NCBI RefSeq assembly: GCF_019668465.1
Contig: NZ_AP024828.1
Location: forward strand, 2,356,001-2,420,000
Source: Mycobacterium senriense
Lineage (GTDB): Bacteria; Actinomycetota; Actinomycetes; Mycobacteriales; Mycobacteriaceae
DNA length: 64,000 bases
Direction: 5' to 3'
A model generated the notes under the pieces. The model was not told where the DNA came from, did no database searches, and saw nothing but the letters and a program-made list of their open reading frames with translations. The position numbers were made by a program, and so were the translations under genes. Positions 25,601 to 41,522 of the stretch are shown here, piece by piece. Numbering within the stretch: position 1 is the first letter of the stretch; each line of letters opens with the position of its first letter.

Positions 25601-25695
25601 TGGCGGAGGCGGACGGGAATTGAACCCGCCAACGGCAGCGACTGCCGTTCGACGGTTTTGAAGACCGCGCCGGTCACCAGACCGGACACGCCTCC
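25601..25695 (-). tRNA. selC: tRNA-Sec (anticodon UCA)
   Basis: Read on the minus strand, the 95 bases run from GGAGGCGTG to GCCTCCGCCA. The long acceptor stem (GGAGGCG...GCCTCC), the long variable arm (a hairpin of AACGGCAG and CTGCCGTT), the T-loop GGTTCAATTCC and the anticodon loop CTTCAAA with anticodon TCA (complement of 25659-25661) identify a selenocysteine tRNA. CCA is encoded (25601-25603). It lies 18 bp upstream of selA on the same strand. Confidence 0.97.
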
Positions 25696-35158: not shown

Positions 35159-35409
35159 CCACCACCCGGGTGCAGGTGGTGCCCAACGGCCCGGTGCTGG
35201 TGTCGGGTCCGGTGCGCATCGAGATGCCCGGCGGCGTGGTCGTCGAATCCGACCGCTTCATGGTGGCCATCTGCACCTGCCGCCGCAGCGGCCGCTACCC
35301 GCTTTGCGACACCAGCCATCGCCGGTGCCGGCGCCTCAAGACGCCGGCAAGCCCGTCTGCTCCAGCGGCCTCCGCAGCGACGTCTGATTCCGCCCCCACG
35401 ACGTCATAA
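35155..35409 (+). CDS. CDGSH iron-sulfur (mitoNEET-type) protein
   Basis: The 84-residue protein carries Cys40, Cys42, Cys51 and His55 (CTCRRSGRYPLCDTSH), the three-Cys one-His ligand set of a CDGSH 2Fe-2S cluster, with GPVLVSGPVRIEMPGG upstream. The cluster should be redox-active and labile. The start overlaps the methyltransferase stop by four bases. Its last 25 codons (Ser/Ala/Pro-rich, probably disordered) overlap the end of the opposite-strand diiron gene by 74 bp. Confidence 0.88.
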   Translation: MTTTRVQVVPNGPVLVSGPVRIEMPGGVVVESDRFMVAICTCRRSGRYPLCDTSHRRCRRLKTPASPSAPAASAATSDSAPTTS

Positions 35410-36376
35410 TCCGTTCTGCCAAGCGGTCTTCGACTGCCGCATGGGCACGGATGCCGAAGATGACGTCGTGCTCGAGCCGTGGATCCTGGGCGACGAGATC
35501 GCCCACCACATCGTTGCGCACGACGTGTTCGTGCACCGCGTCGGCCTCGACGTGTTCGCTGTAGAACTCGATGCAGGCCGCCGGTGCCTGCAGGCGACGC
35601 AAGGCCTTCACCATGCGCTGCGATCCCGGCGGTGAGGTGATCTCCGTCGAGGCGAAGTGCCCGATCGCCGCGCCGCGCATAGAGCGGTGCAGACCGAACA
35701 GTGACATGAGGTTGACCACCGCCAAGGATTCGGCGGGCACCGAGTCGACGTAACCCCAATACGTGGCGTCCAGACCCGCCGCGCTCAGCAGGTCGGCGAA
35801 CAGCTGCTGGTGCAGCCGCGATCCCCGTCCGGCGCCGTATTCGTCGAATTCGATTGCCACAAACGCCGCTTTCGCCACGCCCGTCAGGCGCGGGATGGCA
35901 AAAGCATGCGGATCGCCCTCTTTGAGGTGGTACAGGGAGCGATGTACGAAGTATTCGCACATCTGCTCCCAGGTTCCGGTGTCACGCAGGTAATACGACG
36001 GACCGGTGCCGTCGACGGGTTCGACCGTGAGCGCTTCCATCTCGGCTGCCGCCGTCTGATCGGGATCGATGTGCCCGACGTCGCGGCGCACGCCGGCCAG
36101 GAACACCCGCTCCAGTTCGGCGCGCAGCCCCAGCAGCGCGGGATTCCACTCCCAGGCAGGGTCCACGCCGGCGAGACCGCGGTAGTGCAGCTCGTAGCAC
36201 ATCGACAGCGCCAGTTGCAGATCAAGGCCGTAGGGATCGGAATCGCGCACCGAGGAGCCGATACGCGCCAGGTGGTCGACCGACGGTGGACCGGCCAGCG
36301 CGCAGCGCACGGCTGTTGACAGGGGCCCGTGCGCCGCAGGCAGCATGGGTTCGGTCAGTGTCGATGCGTGGGTCAC
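35336..36376 (-). CDS. Heme-oxygenase-like diiron protein (iron-containing redox enzyme family)
   Basis: The 346-residue helical protein has a C-terminal half with the metal-ligand pattern of heme-oxygenase-like diiron oxidases: E176-F-D-E179 (AIEFDEYGAG), His189, then E274-H275-x3-D279-x2-H282 (FYSEHVEADAVHEH). Relatives include UndA, SznF and BesC, which perform varied oxidations. A longer start at 36442 would overlap the gene upstream; GTG 36376 is preferred because a SigF-type promoter ends ten bases before it. It is the last gene of the stressosome operon and converges on a CDGSH gene. Substrate unknown. Confidence 0.78.
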   Translation of the reverse strand: MTHASTLTEPMLPAAHGPLSTAVRCALAGPPSVDHLARIGSSVRDSDPYGLDLQLALSMCYELHYRGLAGVDPAWEWNPALLGLRAELERVFLAGVRRDVGHIDPDQTAAAEMEALTVEPVDGTGPSYYLRDTGTWEQMCEYFVHRSLYHLKEGDPHAFAIPRLTGVAKAAFVAIEFDEYGAGRGSRLHQQLFADLLSAAGLDATYWGYVDSVPAESLAVVNLMSLFGLHRSMRGAAIGHFASTEITSPPGSQRMVKALRRLQAPAACIEFYSEHVEADAVHEHVVRNDVVGDLVAQDPRLEHDVIFGIRAHAAVEDRLAERIMTSWGRNQTSLRRPLEQTGLPAS

Positions 36377-36385
36377 GTCGGTGTC

Positions 36386-36411
36386 TACCCGCTGCGCGGG
36401 TCGGGCAAACG
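36386..36411 (-). promoter_or_regulatory. SigF-type promoter before the diiron gene
   Basis: On the minus strand CGTTT (36411-36407), 16 bases, GGGTA (36390-36386): four of five and five of five matches to the SigF consensus. The GTG start of the diiron gene is ten bases further, so the message would be nearly leaderless. It would let SigF drive the last gene independently of the stressosome genes upstream. Confidence 0.5.
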
Positions 36412-36428
36412 GCGGGGCAGGCCGGCCG

Positions 36429-38663
36429 CTAACGGCCGTCACGCGCCTCAGACGGCCGTTGAGGCAGGCGGAAGGTGATGTCCGCGGTGGTGCCGCCGGC
36501 CGTTTTATCGAGCTCCATCGAGTCGCTGAGCATCTGCATCAGCGGTAGGCCGCGTCCGCCGTTGCCCGGGGGGATGGCCGGCGCCTTCCACGACCCGTAA
36601 TCGGTGATCCGGGTGCGCACTTCGCCGTCGGCGATACTTACCTCGAGCAGCATGGTTCCGGCGGCGAATCCACGGTAGGCGTGTTCGACACAATTGGTGC
36701 ACGCCTCGTTGACGACCAGCACGATGTCGGCGGCCCGGTCCTCCGTCACGCCACCGGCGTGCAGCCAGTCGGCCAGGCGATGCCGGATGAGGACCAATTG
36801 ATCCGCGGTGGCGCCGGTCTCGATCCGCAGGGGCGTGTGCTGGTGCCGGTAGATCACCATCGCGACGTCGTCGTCATACCCCGCCGCCGGGGAAAGTTCG
36901 CGAAGCACCACGTCGGCGACGGTATCCAGCGGCGACGTCATGGTCTGTGCCAGAACGTCTGCCGCACGGGCGATTCCGTCATCGATCGACTCATGCTTGC
37001 GTTCGACGAGCCCGTCCGTGAACAACATCAGCGTCGAGCCGGGCGGCAGCACCTGGGTGGTCTGCGGACGCGGCTCGGTGCGGCGGACCGCCAGCGGCAC
37101 CGACGCGGCATCGGTCAACATCGTCGTCGTGCCGGGCTCCGGGCCGGCCAGCACGGCCGGCATGTGGCCGGCGTTGCTGTACTGCAGCACCCCGGTCTCG
37201 GTGTCCAGGATCGCCAGGAACACGGTCGTGCAGTACGCGTTCGGGATGAGCGAGGCCGCCGAGTCCAGCTGATCGAGCAGCACGGCGGGCTCGGCGCCGT
37301 TGATCAGCAACGCCCGCGCGGAACTGCGCAGCTGACCCATGATCGCGGCGGCAGGCAGGCCGCGACCCACGCAGTCTCCGACGACGATGCCGATGTGGTG
37401 TTCACCGATCGGCAGCACGTCGTACCAGTCACCGCCAATCTCCAAGGGCGGCACCGCGGGTTCGTAGCGAACGGCGAAACCCGGCGGCGGCTGAACCGGC
37501 GGGAGCATGGCCCGTTGCAACGTCAGCGACGTCTCACGCGCGCTCTCGAACTGGCGCACGTGCTGCATGGCCAGGCTCAGGTGCCCGATGAGCACGGTGA
37601 CCAGCAGCCGATCCTCCCCGCTGACCCAGCGAGGGGTGCGCAGCTCCAGCCACAACGCCAGGTCTCCGGTACCGGAGAGCACCGCGATCAACCCCTGTGC
37701 CTTGCCGGGATGGTCAGGTTCCTCAATCGTTCTCGCCGTCAACGGCAGTTGGTGACGCGCATCTTGAAAAGTATTGCGCAACCATGGATCCAGCGTGCGC
37801 CACGATAAGGCCGAGGACTCGCCCGCCACTTGGACCGTCGGGTCGCCTTCGCCGTTCGGCCACGATACCGCGATCACCCGTTGCACATCGATTGCCGTTC
37901 TGCACTCCTCGAGGGTTATCGACAGCAGCTCGTCCACGCTCTTGGCGACCGCGACAGCGGTGGCCAGACGCAGCACCGCGCTTTCCCGGGCCGCGAAGGC
38001 GCGCTCGGCGGTGACGTCACGGATCGTTCCGACGTAGATGTCTCGATCGCTGCCGGATTCCTTGACCGCGTTGATGCTGAACTTCACCCACGCCAGATGC
38101 CCGTCGGCATGGCGGATCGGTGTTTCGTAATCGGCCCTGCCGTGGCGCAGAACCAGCGTTACCTGTTCGGCTGCCGTCTTCGTGTCGACCATCCAGGGGT
38201 GCGGCCACCGGTACGGCAGGCCCTCGTGGGGAAACCCGAGGATCTCGATGAAGGCGTTGTTTATCTCGACCACGGAGCCCTCGTGATCGGCGACGAAGAA
38301 GCCTTCCTGCAGCGAATTCACCAGTGCGGTGCGGAATTTGTCGCGGTCGGCCAGCCCCTCGGCGCGGGCCCGCTGCTCGGCGTAGCGTCTGTTGCCGTCG
38401 ATGAAGCCGCGCGTCGCGACGTCAAGGGGAACCAGTAGCTGCAGGAGGAACTCCAGCGCGATCGGAGCATCGATGCGCACGTCTTGCGAGATTTCGAATA
38501 CCAGGCGGACATGTTGCTCGACGATGTCGAGCAGGCTGATCTGCTCCTTTAGGGCCCTGCGCCCGAGCTCGTTGCCGACCGACAGGCTCGCCTCGTCGTG
38601 TGAGGCCAGATAGGCGCGCAGCGCGGCCTCGTAATGCTCGTGAAAGTCGGTGTCGTCACTCAA
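36429..38663 (-). CDS. Stressosome output protein: RsbU-like N-terminus, PAS, GAF, PP2C phosphatase, kinase
   Basis: Domains of this 744-residue protein: an RsbU-like helical N-terminus (about 1-95; expected RsbT docking site), PAS (about 105-220; FFVADHEGSVVEINNAF), GAF (about 235-385), SpoIIE-type PP2C (about 400-605; GGDWYDVLPI, VVGDCVGRGLPAA, LMLFTDGLVER, YDDDVAMVIY) and an RsbW-like HATPase (about 615-735; NEACTNCVEHAY, GGRGLPLM). It can thus both remove and, if the ATPase is a kinase, add phosphate on STAS-domain anti-anti-sigma factors, and sense signals through PAS and GAF. It overlaps rsbX by four bases. RsfB, encoded 2.5 kb away, is the obvious substrate, by inference. Confidence 0.9.
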   Translation of the reverse strand: MSDDTDFHEHYEAALRAYLASHDEASLSVGNELGRRALKEQISLLDIVEQHVRLVFEISQDVRIDAPIALEFLLQLLVPLDVATRGFIDGNRRYAEQRARAEGLADRDKFRTALVNSLQEGFFVADHEGSVVEINNAFIEILGFPHEGLPYRWPHPWMVDTKTAAEQVTLVLRHGRADYETPIRHADGHLAWVKFSINAVKESGSDRDIYVGTIRDVTAERAFAARESAVLRLATAVAVAKSVDELLSITLEECRTAIDVQRVIAVSWPNGEGDPTVQVAGESSALSWRTLDPWLRNTFQDARHQLPLTARTIEEPDHPGKAQGLIAVLSGTGDLALWLELRTPRWVSGEDRLLVTVLIGHLSLAMQHVRQFESARETSLTLQRAMLPPVQPPPGFAVRYEPAVPPLEIGGDWYDVLPIGEHHIGIVVGDCVGRGLPAAAIMGQLRSSARALLINGAEPAVLLDQLDSAASLIPNAYCTTVFLAILDTETGVLQYSNAGHMPAVLAGPEPGTTTMLTDAASVPLAVRRTEPRPQTTQVLPPGSTLMLFTDGLVERKHESIDDGIARAADVLAQTMTSPLDTVADVVLRELSPAAGYDDDVAMVIYRHQHTPLRIETGATADQLVLIRHRLADWLHAGGVTEDRAADIVLVVNEACTNCVEHAYRGFAAGTMLLEVSIADGEVRTRITDYGSWKAPAIPPGNGGRGLPLMQMLSDSMELDKTAGGTTADITFRLPQRPSEARDGR

Positions 38664-39286
38664 ATCGATACACCCCTGTGACGCGCCGCCAACACCATCG
38701 CATCGTCGGTCTCTTTCGCGTCCTTGCCGAGCAGCCCTTCGGCGATAGCGACAGCGGTGGCCGAGAAGTCGATGTGGTCCAGATAGTCTTCGGCGATTCC
38801 GTCGGTGCTCATCACGATCAAGTCGCCGGGGCGCATCGGAACCACTTGCGCCGGCCTGATTTCCGGTATGCGATAGCCGACGATGCCTCCGATAAGCCGT
38901 GCGCTGGAACGAATCTCGATACCCGTTGGCACCTTGGCCACCAGGTCGGCGGTGACATTGCCGACGCCGGTCCAGGTGATCGTGTTGGCGGCAAAATCCA
39001 CCCGCGCCAACGTCATTGCGACTCCGCGGGTGCCGACCAACACGCGGTGGCAGAGCTGGATCAGCACCTCGACCCGCTCGGAGCCGGCGCGGGTGACCAC
39101 GTCGACGGCGCGCAGCGCGGCTTCCGCGGCGGCCGGCCCATGGCCGAGGCCGTCCACCACCCCGAACAGCGCGGCCTCACCGCCGACATCGACTGCGATA
39201 CCCCGGTCACCGGAGGTGTATTCGCTGGGCAAAGGCCGCCCCGCCCTTGCCCATTCGATGGGTCCGAACCGACCGCTCTCATGCAC
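38660..39286 (-). CDS. rsbX: RsbX-like PP2C phosphatase
   Basis: The 208-residue minimal SpoIIE/PP2C phosphatase has FGVVDGLGHGPAAAEAA (metal-binding Asp-Gly), a middle GVGN and LIVMSTDGIAEDYL. In Bacillus, RsbX dephosphorylates RsbR and RsbS and resets the stressosome. The GTG overlaps the rsbT stop by eight bases, and its stop overlaps the next start. Gene order R-S-T-X matches the Bacillus module. Confidence 0.88.
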   Translation of the reverse strand: MHESGRFGPIEWARAGRPLPSEYTSGDRGIAVDVGGEAALFGVVDGLGHGPAAAEAALRAVDVVTRAGSERVEVLIQLCHRVLVGTRGVAMTLARVDFAANTITWTGVGNVTADLVAKVPTGIEIRSSARLIGGIVGYRIPEIRPAQVVPMRPGDLIVMSTDGIAEDYLDHIDFSATAVAIAEGLLGKDAKETDDAMVLAARHRGVSI

Positions 39287-39689
39287 GAGGGGGGACCCAT
39301 TTCCACATTTCGATGACGGTTCCCTGTCCCAGCGTGGACGCGACGACGAGCCGGTCCATCAGGCGGCGGGCGCCCGGCAAACCCAGGCCCAGCCCGCGTC
39401 CGGTTGTATAACCGTCTTCCATCGCCCGTTCGATGTCGGCGATGCCGGGCCCCTGATCCTCGGCGCGCACCACCAGGGCCTTGCGTCCCTCCCGGTCGGC
39501 GATGGCGACCCGGACAGCGCCGCGGCCGGCGTAGCTGGTGATATTCCGGGCGATCTCGGAGATCGCCGTGGCGATCATCGTGACGTCGGTCAGGGAGAAT
39601 CCCAAATCAAGGGCGAGCTCGTGTCCGGCTTTGCGGGCTTCGACGATGTCGTCGGGGTGGTCGATGGCGACGACGATATCAGCCGCCAC
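39279..39689 (-). CDS. rsbT: Stressosome kinase RsbT
   Basis: This 136-residue GHKL kinase phosphorylates RsbS and RsbR, then leaves the complex to activate an RsbU-type phosphatase. The N-box SEIARNI (Glu45, Asn49) and the G boxes EDQGPGI and TTGRGLGLGLPGA are complete. The N-terminus overlaps the end of rsbS by 11 bp. It lies directly upstream of its negative regulator and its likely partner phosphatase. Confidence 0.93.
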   Translation of the reverse strand: MAADIVVAIDHPDDIVEARKAGHELALDLGFSLTDVTMIATAISEIARNITSYAGRGAVRVAIADREGRKALVVRAEDQGPGIADIERAMEDGYTTGRGLGLGLPGARRLMDRLVVASTLGQGTVIEMWKWVPPRA

Positions 39690-40068
39690 CGTCGAGCCCG
39701 ATCGTTGACTTCCCCGCTCCGCCTCGGCGATTGAGCAGCGCGAGGCCCTCTTCGAGATCCAGTGCGGTGTTCATGTCGTCGAACTCCAGGCCAAGCTGGA
39801 CCATCGCGAAGGCAACCTCCGGCTGCAATCCGACGATCACGGTGTCCGCGCCGCGCAGCCGGGTCATGTGCGCAATCGTCCGCAGCGACCGGGCGGCGAA
39901 GGAATCCATCACGTCGATGGCGGTGACGTCGACGATGATGCCCTGCGCGCGGAACTGGCTGACCCGTTCCATCAGGTCGTAGCGGAGGCGTTCGGCGTCG
40001 GAGTCGGTGAGGGCGGCCTGTACCGACGCGATGAGGATCGAGCCCTGTTTCAGGATCGGTACTGGCAT
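39679..40068 (-). CDS. rsbS: Stressosome scaffold RsbS (single STAS domain)
   Basis: The 129-residue STAS protein has the phosphorylation loop VDVTAIDVMDSFAARS; Ser56 matches Ser59 of Bacillus RsbS. LQPEVAFAMVQLGLEF follows. It holds RsbT in the core of the stressosome until phosphorylated. It starts 22 bp after rsbR. Confidence 0.93.
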   Translation of the reverse strand: MPVPILKQGSILIASVQAALTDSDAERLRYDLMERVSQFRAQGIIVDVTAIDVMDSFAARSLRTIAHMTRLRGADTVIVGLQPEVAFAMVQLGLEFDDMNTALDLEEGLALLNRRGGAGKSTIGLDGGG

Positions 40069-40090
40069 GGGGTGCTCGCGTCGATGGTGG

Positions 40091-40993
40091 TTATCCGGTC
40101 TGCTCGCCCGTGCGGGTCACCTCATAACCCAGCAGGCGTTCGGCTTCCTCGATCCCGCCCTGCAGGTCACCGACGGCGTTCATCTTCGACAGGTCCAGCC
40201 CGATCGTCACCAGCGTCAGCGCGATCTCGGAGGACAGGCCGGTGATGATCACGCTGGCGCCCATCAGGCCGGATGCGTCGACCGTCTGCACCAGGTGGTT
40301 GGCCACCGTCGAGTCGATGGTCGGCACACCGGTGATGTCGATGACCACCACTTTGGCGCGGTTCGCGCGGATGGCCCGCAGCAGCTGTTCGGTGACCTGG
40401 CGGGCGCGCTGGCTGTCCAGCACCCCGATGATCGGCAGGATCAGCAGCTGTTCACGCACCTGCAGCACCGGCGTCGACAACTCGCGGATGGCCTCCTGCT
40501 GCTGGCGGATGATGCGCTCGCGTTCCTGCACGAAGCTGACGCCCACGGTGTTGGCGATGCGGTTGGCCGCCGGCTCGTAGGCGTCGAGGACGCGGTTGAG
40601 CATCTCGAACTCGGTCTGATACTTCTCGAATAGCGAGCGGGCGAGCACGTCACGCAGCAGCAGGACGATGCCGAGCACCTCGTCGGTCTCCACGCCTCGC
40701 GGAATGATGCGTTCGGACAGGTCACGCGCGTAGGCCTGCAGCGCCTCGACGCTACCGGTCTCAAGCACCTCGACGTAGTTGTCGTAAACGGCCGTGGCTT
40801 CGGAGAACAGCTCCTCCGGCGTCATGGCGGTGAGCAGCTCGGCCTCGGTGATCCGGCGGGCCCATTCCTCTCGCAGGACGGTTCGATTCTGCCGCAGATG
40901 CTGGACCAGCTGGGGAAGGAGCCCCTCACTGGAAATGCCGACGGTCTGTGCTGCAGTGCCGGTACTGTTGAAATCCGACGGCGAATCTGACAT
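40091..40993 (-). CDS. rsbR: Stressosome sensor RsbR
   Basis: The 300-residue protein has an all-helical N-terminal sensor half (about 20-165; LLLRDVLARSLFEKYQ, then the conserved linker ERERIIRQQQEAIRELSTPVLQV) and a C-terminal STAS domain with VVIDITGVPTIDSTVANHL. Ser228/Thr229 sit where Bacillus RsbR carries Thr171. The N-terminal half resembles non-heme globin-like RsbR sensors (RsbRD type); its ligand is unknown. It heads the six-gene operon and is divergent from rsfB with 160 bp between. Confidence 0.92.
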   Translation of the reverse strand: MSDSPSDFNSTGTAAQTVGISSEGLLPQLVQHLRQNRTVLREEWARRITEAELLTAMTPEELFSEATAVYDNYVEVLETGSVEALQAYARDLSERIIPRGVETDEVLGIVLLLRDVLARSLFEKYQTEFEMLNRVLDAYEPAANRIANTVGVSFVQERERIIRQQQEAIRELSTPVLQVREQLLILPIIGVLDSQRARQVTEQLLRAIRANRAKVVVIDITGVPTIDSTVANHLVQTVDASGLMGASVIITGLSSEIALTLVTIGLDLSKMNAVGDLQGGIEEAERLLGYEVTRTGEQTG

Positions 40994-41153
40994 CTGGCCT
41001 CCCGAGTGCCACGTCGCGCCCTGCGGTCTGCAGTTCCTGTTGCGAGACTAGCGTGGGTTGTCGCGGGGCACGTGTAGAGGGCATATTCTTCTCGCAGTTC
41101 GGTAACGCAGGCTAGGGTTGTAGCACGCCACGGCCCAGGACAAAGGATTGCCA

Positions 41154-41522
41154 TTGTCAGCTCCTGACTCGATTACCACGTTAGTTGAGGACCACGACGG
41201 CGTGTCCGTGGTCAGTGTCAGCGGCGAAATCGATTTGGTCACGGCCCCGGCCCTGGAACAAGCCATCAGCGCGGTCGTCGCGGACAGCCCCGCAGCACTG
41301 ATCATCGATCTCTCCGCGGTGGAGTTTCTCGGCTCGGTCGGCCTGAAGATCCTGGCGGCGACCTTCGAGAAGCTGGGCAACCAGACCGGGTTCGGCGTGG
41401 TCGCGCGCGGCCCGGCCACCCGCAGGCCGATCCATCTGACCGGCCTGGACAAGACCTTCCCGCTGTACCCGACGCTCGACGACGCGTTGACCGGGGTGCG
41501 CGACGGCAAGCTCAACGGCTAG
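41154..41522 (+). CDS. rsfB: Anti-anti-sigma factor RsfB
   Basis: Unphosphorylated RsfB binds the anti-sigma factor UsfX/RsbW and frees SigF. It is a 122-residue STAS protein with Ser61 in IIDLSAVEFLGSVG as the phosphorylation site. The TTG at 41154 is chosen because it gives MSAPDSIT, as I recall the M. tuberculosis start; another TTG lies two codons upstream. It is the counterpart of Rv3687c but here faces a stressosome operon instead of yqeY. No strong promoter is visible; a weak GGTTG...GGGCAT lies at 41056-41084 with an 18-base spacer. Confidence 0.92.
   Translation: MSAPDSITTLVEDHDGVSVVSVSGEIDLVTAPALEQAISAVVADSPAALIIDLSAVEFLGSVGLKILAATFEKLGNQTGFGVVARGPATRRPIHLTGLDKTFPLYPTLDDALTGVRDGKLNG

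What the first reader, a model, noticed from the sequence alone, without database searches (positions are those of the whole stretch)
36429..41522. Complete stressosome operon divergent from the SigF regulator gene rsfB
rsbR, rsbS, rsbT and rsbX in the Bacillus order are followed by a single protein with RsbU-like N-terminus, PAS, GAF, PP2C and an RsbW-like ATPase. All junctions from rsbS on overlap. No sigma factor or separate anti-sigma gene is in the operon; the only partner-switch gene nearby is rsfB, 160 bp away and divergent. M. tuberculosis has rsfB in this place but no stressosome here. I infer that RsbT released by stress activates the phosphatase, which dephosphorylates RsfB at Ser61 and so frees SigF.
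Basis: partly seen in the sequence, partly recalled or inferred. Interest (0 to 1): 0.85.

Follow-up and report, generated by a model that had tools for sequence, protein, structure and literature searches.

The report
Mycobacterial stressosome operon beside rsfB
This is a real bacterial stress-sensing gene cluster of a kind already reported in most slow-growing mycobacteria; comparing it with relatives shows its genes being lost in the order in which the signal is thought to pass, which supports the proposed wiring and turns up species that keep the messenger gene without its sensor.

Summary
In detail: rsbR, rsbS, rsbT, rsbX and a fused RsbU_N-PAS-(GAF-like)-PP2C-HATPase protein ("RsbUW") lie 154 bp from, and divergent to, rsfB. 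It is not new: PMC8115616 (2021) reports rsbV/R/S/T/X/UW in most slow-growing mycobacteria. New here is comparative evidence for the wiring. In 127 distinct related loci only four gene contents occur, and they nest: R, S and X are all present or all absent; T occurs with them or alone (6 loci; no rsbR or rsbS elsewhere in those genomes); RsbU_N is present in all 99 loci with T; rsfB remains in 124 of 127. Without T, RsbU_N is deleted in one clade and clearly decayed in another, but near normal in three further loci. This supports RsbT -> RsbU_N -> PP2C -> RsfB. RsfB is the orthologue of M. tuberculosis RsfB, whose complex with anti-SigF UsfX is in the PDB. usfX-sigF lie 1.9 Mb away, and UsfX seems to lack the kinase Asn, so the fused HATPase domain is the likeliest RsfB kinase. 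No binding, kinase or phosphatase step was shown. Verdict: a known system; the stressosome-free rsbT loci are a new variant worth testing.

The parts
41148..41522 (+). rsfB, single-STAS anti-anti-sigma factor; presumed phospho-acceptor Ser63 in TTG-41148 numbering (= Ser61 of the 122-aa form)
   Evidence: Pfam STAS E 1.4e-20; M. tuberculosis RsfB 8ih8 E 1.3e-51; Ser in 125 of 125 aligned copies incl. own
40994..41147 (.). divergent intergenic region; a weak SigF-like box (GTTG-N18-GGGCAT, 2 mismatches) lies upstream of rsfB
   Evidence: shared among near relatives, not proven functional
40091..40993 (-). rsbR: N-terminal helical (globin-like) domain plus STAS; stressosome sensor/scaffold
   Evidence: Pfam STAS E 6.1e-15, RsbRD_N E 0.0023 (below its cut-off); Listeria RsbR E 2.1e-29 (7b0u), best PDB match E 5.4e-30 (9o3o); model matches Listeria stressosome (E 2.6e-11) and, weakly, globin sensor AfGcHK (E 5.7e-3)
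39679..40068 (-). rsbS: single STAS scaffold protein
   Evidence: Pfam STAS E 1.5e-14
39279..39689 (-). rsbT: HATPase kinase/switch protein
   Evidence: HATPase_c E 1.9e-10; N, G1 and G2 boxes by eye
38660..39286 (-). rsbX: small PP2C/SpoIIE phosphatase, presumed feedback phosphatase of RsbR/RsbS
   Evidence: SpoIIE E 1e-10; found in 93 of 93 loci with R and S and in 0 of 34 without
36429..38663 (-). rsbUW: RsbU_N (9-82), linker (83-109), PAS (119-218), GAF-like (about 242-344), helix (348-385), PP2C (about 395-606), RsbW-like HATPase (about 611-731)
35336..36442 (-). haem-oxygenase-like (PF14518) gene overlapping rsbUW by 14 bp; possible last gene of the operon, role unknown
   Evidence: found in 60 of 80 named loci, in a few of them not directly adjacent

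Best explanation
It is a complete stressosome operon of the known mycobacterial kind. RsbR (helical, globin-like sensor domain) and RsbS form the scaffold that holds RsbT; on stress RsbT phosphorylates them and leaves, and RsbX resets them (inferred from Bacillus/Listeria). Free RsbT binds the RsbU_N domain and linker of the fused RsbUW and switches its PP2C domain on. RsbUW is most likely a two-way enzyme for RsfB: its HATPase domain phosphorylates RsfB at Ser61 when RsbT is held, its PP2C domain removes the phosphate when RsbT is bound. Unphosphorylated RsfB then binds UsfX and frees SigF, encoded 1.9 Mb away. Shown here: gene content and order, domain make-up, orthology of RsfB, conservation of Ser61, and the co-occurrence of T with RsbU_N and of RsbUW with rsfB. 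Inferred: every binding and catalytic step, and SigF as the end point.
For: Domains. Linkage: rsfB-like gene in 77 of 80 named loci, divergent in 73 of 73 mycobacterial ones where seen, co-directional downstream of RsbUW in 4 of 6 Nocardia-group loci; in 124 of 127 distinct loci. Nested gene content in 127 loci: RSTX+RsbU_N 93, T only+RsbU_N 6, none+RsbU_N 12 (one a contig edge), none without RsbU_N 16, nothing else. No rsbR or rsbS in any of the six T-only genomes; T present. T-only needs 4 changes on the RsbUW tree, 4 forced by starred branches. Short rsbR-like relics beside two T-only copies. In 6 of 11 T-less loci RsbU_N is less like its nearest full-operon relative than any control pair. 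RsfB is orthologous to M. tuberculosis RsfB, with a UsfX-RsfB complex in the PDB. In M. smegmatis a kinase (RsbW2) and a PP2C (RsfR) act on RsfB (PMC7693655, PMC10950880, passages). In 5 of 5 Nocardia loci GTTT-N17-GGGTAT stands before rsbR, the only match in each locus; published mycobacterial SigF consensus GGWWT-N16-17-GGGTAY.
Against: No experiment. The six T-less loci below all controls belong to one rapid-grower clade and share one comparator (L095); of the others L063, L155 and L156 are within the control range (41%, 19% and 61% of control pairs as low or lower), L101 and L135 near its low end. Two T-only loci (L146, L153) are also low (2% and 6%). So RsbU_N decay without T is clear in one clade only. 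The N-less state is one event on the tree. Two of six Nocardia-group loci (L110, L112) have no rsfB-like gene above 40 bits nearby. B. subtilis RsbU contact residue Tyr28 is Ser here and Ala in most relatives. The M. smegmatis-layout RsfB falls in a different STAS branch (support 85), so that functional evidence does not transfer by simple orthology.
Confidence: 0.72

Rival explanations
1. RsbUW acts mainly on another STAS protein (for example the second RsfB-like protein with its RsbW2-like partner gene at G000:C1 about 1530 kb) and its neighbourhood with rsfB is historical.
For: Ten STAS_2 matches in the genome, own RsfB and RsbR among them; STAS2 is 48% identical to RsfB over 100 residues and sits with an RsbW2-like HATPase gene.
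Against: rsfB stays beside RsbUW in 124 of 127 loci through loss of R, S, T, X and of RsbU_N, and lies downstream in the same direction in four of the six Nocardia-group loci; STAS2 already has its own HATPase gene.
Confidence: 0.12
2. The HATPase domain of RsbUW is a second anti-sigma factor (binding SigF or the second SigB/F/G-type factor) rather than, or besides, the RsfB kinase.
For: Its fold matches B. subtilis RsbW (6m37, TMt 0.91) and Rv1364c (3ke6); Rv1364c is reported to bind SigF in vitro (PMC10950880, passage); two sigma genes pass the SigB/F/G cut-off.
Against: usfX-sigF is present elsewhere as a pair; E652, N656, D687, G689 and G702-G704 (numbering, from the second codon) are invariant in 24 copies, so the kinase boxes are kept, while own UsfX has Arg in place of the N-box Asn by eye, so a separate kinase is needed.
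Confidence: 0.2
3. The stressosome controls something other than SigF through RsbUW (for example the overlapping haem-oxygenase-like gene), with RsfB only a side branch.
For: The haem-oxygenase-like gene overlaps RsbUW and is found in 60 of 80 named loci; RsbT and RsbU_N are reported to control other outputs elsewhere (PMC12143880, passages).
Against: That gene was not found in any of the six Nocardia-group loci or in the named rapid-grower loci L092-L096, L098-L101 and L104, where rsfB is present except in L110 and L112; SigF-type promoter boxes precede rsbR in 5 of 5 Nocardia loci.
Confidence: 0.08

Closest known systems
Mycobacterial rsbV, rsbR, rsbS, rsbT, rsbX, rsbUW set (PMC8115616; M. 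marinum rsbR MMAR_5182, rsbS MMAR_5183)
   Same: Same gene set, in slow-growing mycobacteria; interactions among M. marinum RsbR, RsbS, RsbT and RsbUVW reported
   Different: No difference found for the window; the paper's figures and supplements were not read, so its gene map was not compared
Bacillus subtilis / Listeria RsbRST stressosome with RsbX and RsbU
   Same: Order R-S-T; RsbR matches Listeria RsbR over most of its length; RsbU_N matches B. subtilis RsbU
   Different: RsbX lies between RsbT and the phosphatase; the phosphatase carries PAS, a GAF-like domain and a C-terminal HATPase; sigma and anti-sigma genes are elsewhere (Bacillus layout recalled)
M. tuberculosis Rv1364c (PDB 3ke6)
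   Same: PP2C and HATPase domains fused (E 1.3e-43 by sequence; 31% identity in the structural match)
   Different: Rv1364c has its own STAS domain (PMC10950880, passage); here the STAS partner is the separate RsfB and RsbU_N is present. The window genome also has a PP2C-HATPase-STAS gene at C1 3882.9-3884.1 kb, Rv1364c-like by domain make-up
M. smegmatis rsfB-rsbW2 with rsfSR (PMC7693655, PMC10950880)
   Same: A kinase and a PP2C phosphatase for RsfB encoded beside rsfB
   Different: Separate proteins, two-component input instead of a stressosome; STAS proteins of that layout fall in a different branch

Membership tests
RsbRST stressosome | RsbR with a sensor domain plus STAS, homologous to solved stressosome RsbR | tested here: met
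RsbRST stressosome | RsbS single-STAS protein and RsbT HATPase encoded next to RsbR in R-S-T order | tested here: met
RsbRST stressosome | Assembly of R, S and T into the large complex; stress-driven phosphorylation and release of RsbT | not testable with these tools
   needs biochemistry; interactions of the M. marinum proteins are reported in PMC8115616 (abstract)
RsbU phosphatases | RsbU_N domain plus SpoIIE/PP2C domain | tested here: met
   PF08673 E 1.7e-20, PF07228 E 4.6e-40
RsbU phosphatases | Activation by RsbT | tested here: inconclusive
   co-occurrence of T with RsbU_N and partial decay without T support it; no binding test
RsfB (anti-SigF antagonist) | Orthology to M. tuberculosis RsfB and acceptor serine | tested here: met
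   8ih8 E 1.3e-51; Ser in 125 of 125
RsfB (anti-SigF antagonist) | Binds UsfX and frees SigF | not testable with these tools
   a UsfX-RsfB complex is in the PDB by title (8ih8)
Mycobacterial rsbRSTX-rsbUW set | Presence of all five genes plus adjacent rsfB/rsbV | tested here: met
Rv1364c (RsbUVW) family | C-terminal STAS domain in the same chain | tested here: not met
   no STAS match in RsbUW

The most novel reading that the evidence does not exclude
In several mycobacterial lineages RsbT has outlived the stressosome. Six genomes keep rsbT directly upstream of RsbUW and divergent from rsfB with rsbR, rsbS and rsbX gone from the locus and no rsbR or rsbS found in the genome. The RsbUW tree needs at least four changes for this state, and each spares the one gene between two lost ones; RsbT keeps its ATP-binding boxes and RsbU_N the sites fixed in full-operon loci. 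So RsbT works there as a stressosome-free activator or sensor of the fused phosphatase/kinase, with a signal of its own (for example ATP/ADP state or PAS/GAF input), and the pathway has been pruned from the sensor downwards.
Probability: 0.6. Interest if true: 0.7.

Novelty: new member of a known kind. Interest (0 to 1): 0.5.

Why it matters
SigF is a general stress sigma factor of mycobacteria, and how its antagonist RsfB is switched outside M. smegmatis is open. The gene-loss series gives a ready set of natural truncations (full; T+RsbUW; RsbUW with RsbU_N but no T; RsbUW without RsbU_N; rsfB alone) with which each link of the pathway can be tested. If RsbT without a stressosome is functional, RsbT can no longer be seen only as cargo released by RsbR/RsbS.

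Tried and rejected
RsbU_N loss as strict marker of T loss: rejected, because 11 T-less loci keep an RsbU_N, three of them near normal. Horizontal transfer as the sole reason for the near-invariant RsbR: rejected, because synonymous differences are high (pS 0.37-0.54 to L107, L109 and L111) while pN is 0.047-0.069; pS is somewhat lower than for the other genes, so it is not excluded as a part. The HATPase gene at L010/L188 as UsfX: rejected, no sigma gene next to it; the usfX-sigF pair is in L192. A SigF-type promoter before rsbR in the window: not found with up to 3 mismatches; the box before rsfB has two mismatches and an 18-base spacer; 31 of 91 full-operon loci have a best match with 2 mismatches before rsfB against 55 of 455 shuffles, partly through close kinship. 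Literature: the listings showed no title or abstract start on RsbT without RsbR/RsbS; most subscription papers are not held, and the 2013 M. marinum paper was not seen.
Full report
WHAT IS THERE. Reading leftwards from the divergent rsfB gene: rsbR, rsbS, rsbT, rsbX and one 744-residue protein here called RsbUW. Pfam gives RsbUW an RsbU_N domain (E 1.7e-20), PAS, SpoIIE-type PP2C (E 4.6e-40) and HATPase_c_2 (E 1.9e-26). The PDB sequence search matches the N-terminus to B. subtilis RsbU (1w53, E 0.0045) and PP2C+HATPase to Rv1364c (3ke6, E 1.3e-43). The AlphaFold2 model (24 sequences, mean pLDDT 79, pTM 0.48) shows a four-helix N-terminus, PAS, an alpha/beta domain at about 242-344 that I call GAF-like, a long helix, PP2C and HATPase; domain packing in it is not to be trusted. 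RsbR is homologous over most of its length to Listeria RsbR (7b0u, E 2.1e-29; best match 9o3o, E 5.4e-30); its model (22 sequences, mean pLDDT 75.5, pTM 0.48) matches the Listeria stressosome (E 2.6e-11) and, weakly, a globin sensor (E 5.7e-3).

ALREADY KNOWN. PMC8115616 (parts 1 and 3 of 7 and passages read; [quoted passage not shown] tuberculosis complex, M. leprae, M. lepromatosis, M. ulcerans and the M. terrae and M. triviale clades as exceptions, and that most rapid growers lack R, S, T, X and UW. The window locus is one more case: four M. colombiense loci have RsbUW at 90-93% identity.

RSFB. The window's RsfB matches M. tuberculosis RsfB in the PDB over its length (8ih8, E 1.3e-51, 177 bits; the species of 8ih8 is recalled); 8ih8 is titled a UsfX-RsfB complex. 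A homologue search lists an M. marinum protein named RsfB at 84% identity (P0036). The acceptor serine is Ser63 counted from the TTG at 41148 and Ser61 in the 122-residue form, and is Ser in 125 of 125 aligned copies, own included. STAS proteins of the M. smegmatis layout (STAS and HATPase genes in tandem, a PP2C gene convergent downstream; 10 loci, L173-L182, judged by layout) match 8ih8 less well (84 bits for L173) and fall in another branch together with a second RsfB-like protein of the window's own genome (support 85, quick tree). The name RsfB may thus cover two lineages, each with its own kinase.

A NESTED SERIES OF GENE LOSSES. I collected 80 named loci (the best 80 of 579) and 60 regions from unnamed genus genomes, most of them chosen because their RsbUW was diverged, partial or close to rsfB; this is not a random sample. 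Genes were called by phmmer against window proteins (UW above 300 bits, R 150, S, T and X 120, RsfB 85). Result: 93 with R, S, T, X and RsbU_N; 6 with T only and RsbU_N; 12 with none of the four but RsbU_N present (one, L069, is a contig edge, leaving 11); 16 with none and no RsbU_N. No other combination was seen. In L037 and L061 rsbR lies in two frames and is counted as present. rsfB was present in 124 of 127 (missing in L069, L110, L112). Whole-genome searches: T was absent from 29 of 45 handles (four genomes are in it twice, so 25 of 41) and from 8 of 11 (one of the eight, G199, is by contig number the genome of L063 already). R was found in 2 of 25 genomes (G000 and G319) and in none of the six T-only ones; S in 2 of 12, likewise. 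Five of the six T-only genomes are one-contig assemblies at 99-100% completeness. X was not searched genome-wide.

ORDER AND INDEPENDENCE. On a quick tree of 86 RsbUW sequences from PAS to HATPase, without RsbU_N (6 of the 16 N-less rows and 63 of the 94 full-operon rows, own included, were used), T-only needs four changes (four forced by starred branches), RsbUW-only five and N-less one; the N-less clade groups with a three-member T-only clade (support 81). One T-only row, L146, is a long branch whose place is unsure. Changes on the tree do not tell loss from gain; short relics point to loss: L153 has 21 residues like the rsbR tail (E 6e-4) and L142 23 residues like rsbR 245-267 (E 0.003) just before rsbT, and L171 (G324) has rsfB with fragments of RsbUW (residues 626-695, 717-734). 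Since T lies between S and X, keeping T means losses on both flanks.

RSBU_N AND RSBT. Against its nearest full-operon relative, the RsbU_N of the 11 T-less loci is 44-72% identical while PP2C-HATPase is 81-87% identical. Control pairs of full-operon loci give 72% (sd 9, min 57, n=101) at core identity 80-85% and 82% (sd 8, min 65, n=91) at 85-90%. Six of 11 lie below the minimum of their controls and none above the mean. But these six, L101 and L135 belong to one rapid-grower clade with the same comparator (L095); L063, L155 and L156, separate lineages, lie within range. The six T-only loci lie within range, two of them low (L146 2%, L153 6% of controls as low). The linker (83-109) is partly deleted in 5 of 11 T-less loci (L100, L101, L104, L129, L155) and in none of the T-only ones. 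Positions nearly fixed in full-operon loci (L45, L74, Q75, G90, A105) are kept in 6 of 6 T-only loci but in 3, 6, 3, 4 and 2 of 11 T-less ones. Position 74 corresponds to I74 of B. subtilis RsbU (alignment), named with E24, Y28 and I78 as lying in the RsbT interface (PMC12143880, passages); E24 is kept here, Y28 is Ser. T-only RsbT keeps N, G1 and G2 boxes in 6 of 6 by eye; pairwise dN/dS worked out was 0.09 (L142 against full-operon L136), 0.15 (L148-L151) and 0.18 (L151-L154).

THE KINASE. In M. smegmatis RsbW2 phosphorylates RsfB and RsfR dephosphorylates it (PMC7693655, PMC10950880; passages). In the window genome UsfX (L192) has Arg in place of the N-box Asn by eye, whereas RsbUW keeps E652, N656, D687, G689 and G702-G704 (counted from the second codon) invariant in 24 sequences. 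I infer that RsbUW is kinase and phosphatase of RsfB in one chain. It is not shown.

LINK TO A SIGF-TYPE FACTOR. The published mycobacterial consensus is GGWWT-N16-17-GGGTAY. All five Nocardia loci (two of them from one species) have GTTT-N17-GGGTAT upstream of rsbR, the only match in each locus on either strand; 55 matches in 3,282,708 strand-bases over the 80 loci give about 0.003 per 200 nt. Antrihabitans (L109) has none, and the window has none before rsbR.

RSBR. RsbR is 89-98% identical to the window's in the 21 relatives aligned, 90-93% in the five Nocardia-group ones among them, while RsbUW is 48-50% there. The sensor part is nearly as conserved as the STAS part, which I recall as unusual for a stressosome sensor; it suggests one fixed signal or partner.

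Noticed in passing
L142, L146, L148, L151, L153, L154 (genomes G125, G183, G232, G208, G261, G068): rsbT kept directly before RsbUW without rsbR, rsbS or rsbX in the locus; no rsbR or rsbS found in these genomes.
   Followed up: yes
L107, L108, L110, L111, L112 upstream of rsbR: Perfect SigF-type promoter boxes, with spacers that differ between species, before the Nocardia stressosome operon.
   Followed up: partly
window 40091-40993 and L107, L109-L112: RsbR, sensor domain included, is 90-93% identical between Mycobacterium and the Nocardia group while the other proteins of the operon range from about 47 to 81% in the loci compared.
   Followed up: partly
window 35336-36442: Haem-oxygenase-like gene overlapping the 3' end of rsbUW by 14 bp; also found in 60 of 80 named loci.
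   Followed up: partly
G000:C1 about 1530.0-1530.9 kb (L187 7045-7928): Second RsfB-like STAS gene directly followed by an RsbW2-like HATPase gene in the window's own genome.
   Followed up: partly
G000:C1 4665595-4666269 (L195): A second sigma factor over the SigB/F/G family cut-off; no STAS_2 or HATPase_c_2 match of the genome lists lies next to it.
   Followed up: no
L171 (G324) and L185 (G030): rsfB beside fragments of RsbUW (L171) and beside an RsbUW split over two overlapping reading frames (L185); described only.
   Followed up: no
L037 and L061: rsbR lies in two overlapping reading frames in these two loci; real break or sequencing error not decided.
   Followed up: no
L095, L096, L098, L100, L101, L104, L129, L135, L138, L141: Further genes matching the PP2C part of RsbUW lie next to the rsfB-RsbUW locus in these rapid-grower-type genomes, perhaps alternative inputs to RsfB.
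   Followed up: no
window 25601-25695: tRNA for selenocysteine predicted by ARAGORN (minus strand).
   Followed up: no
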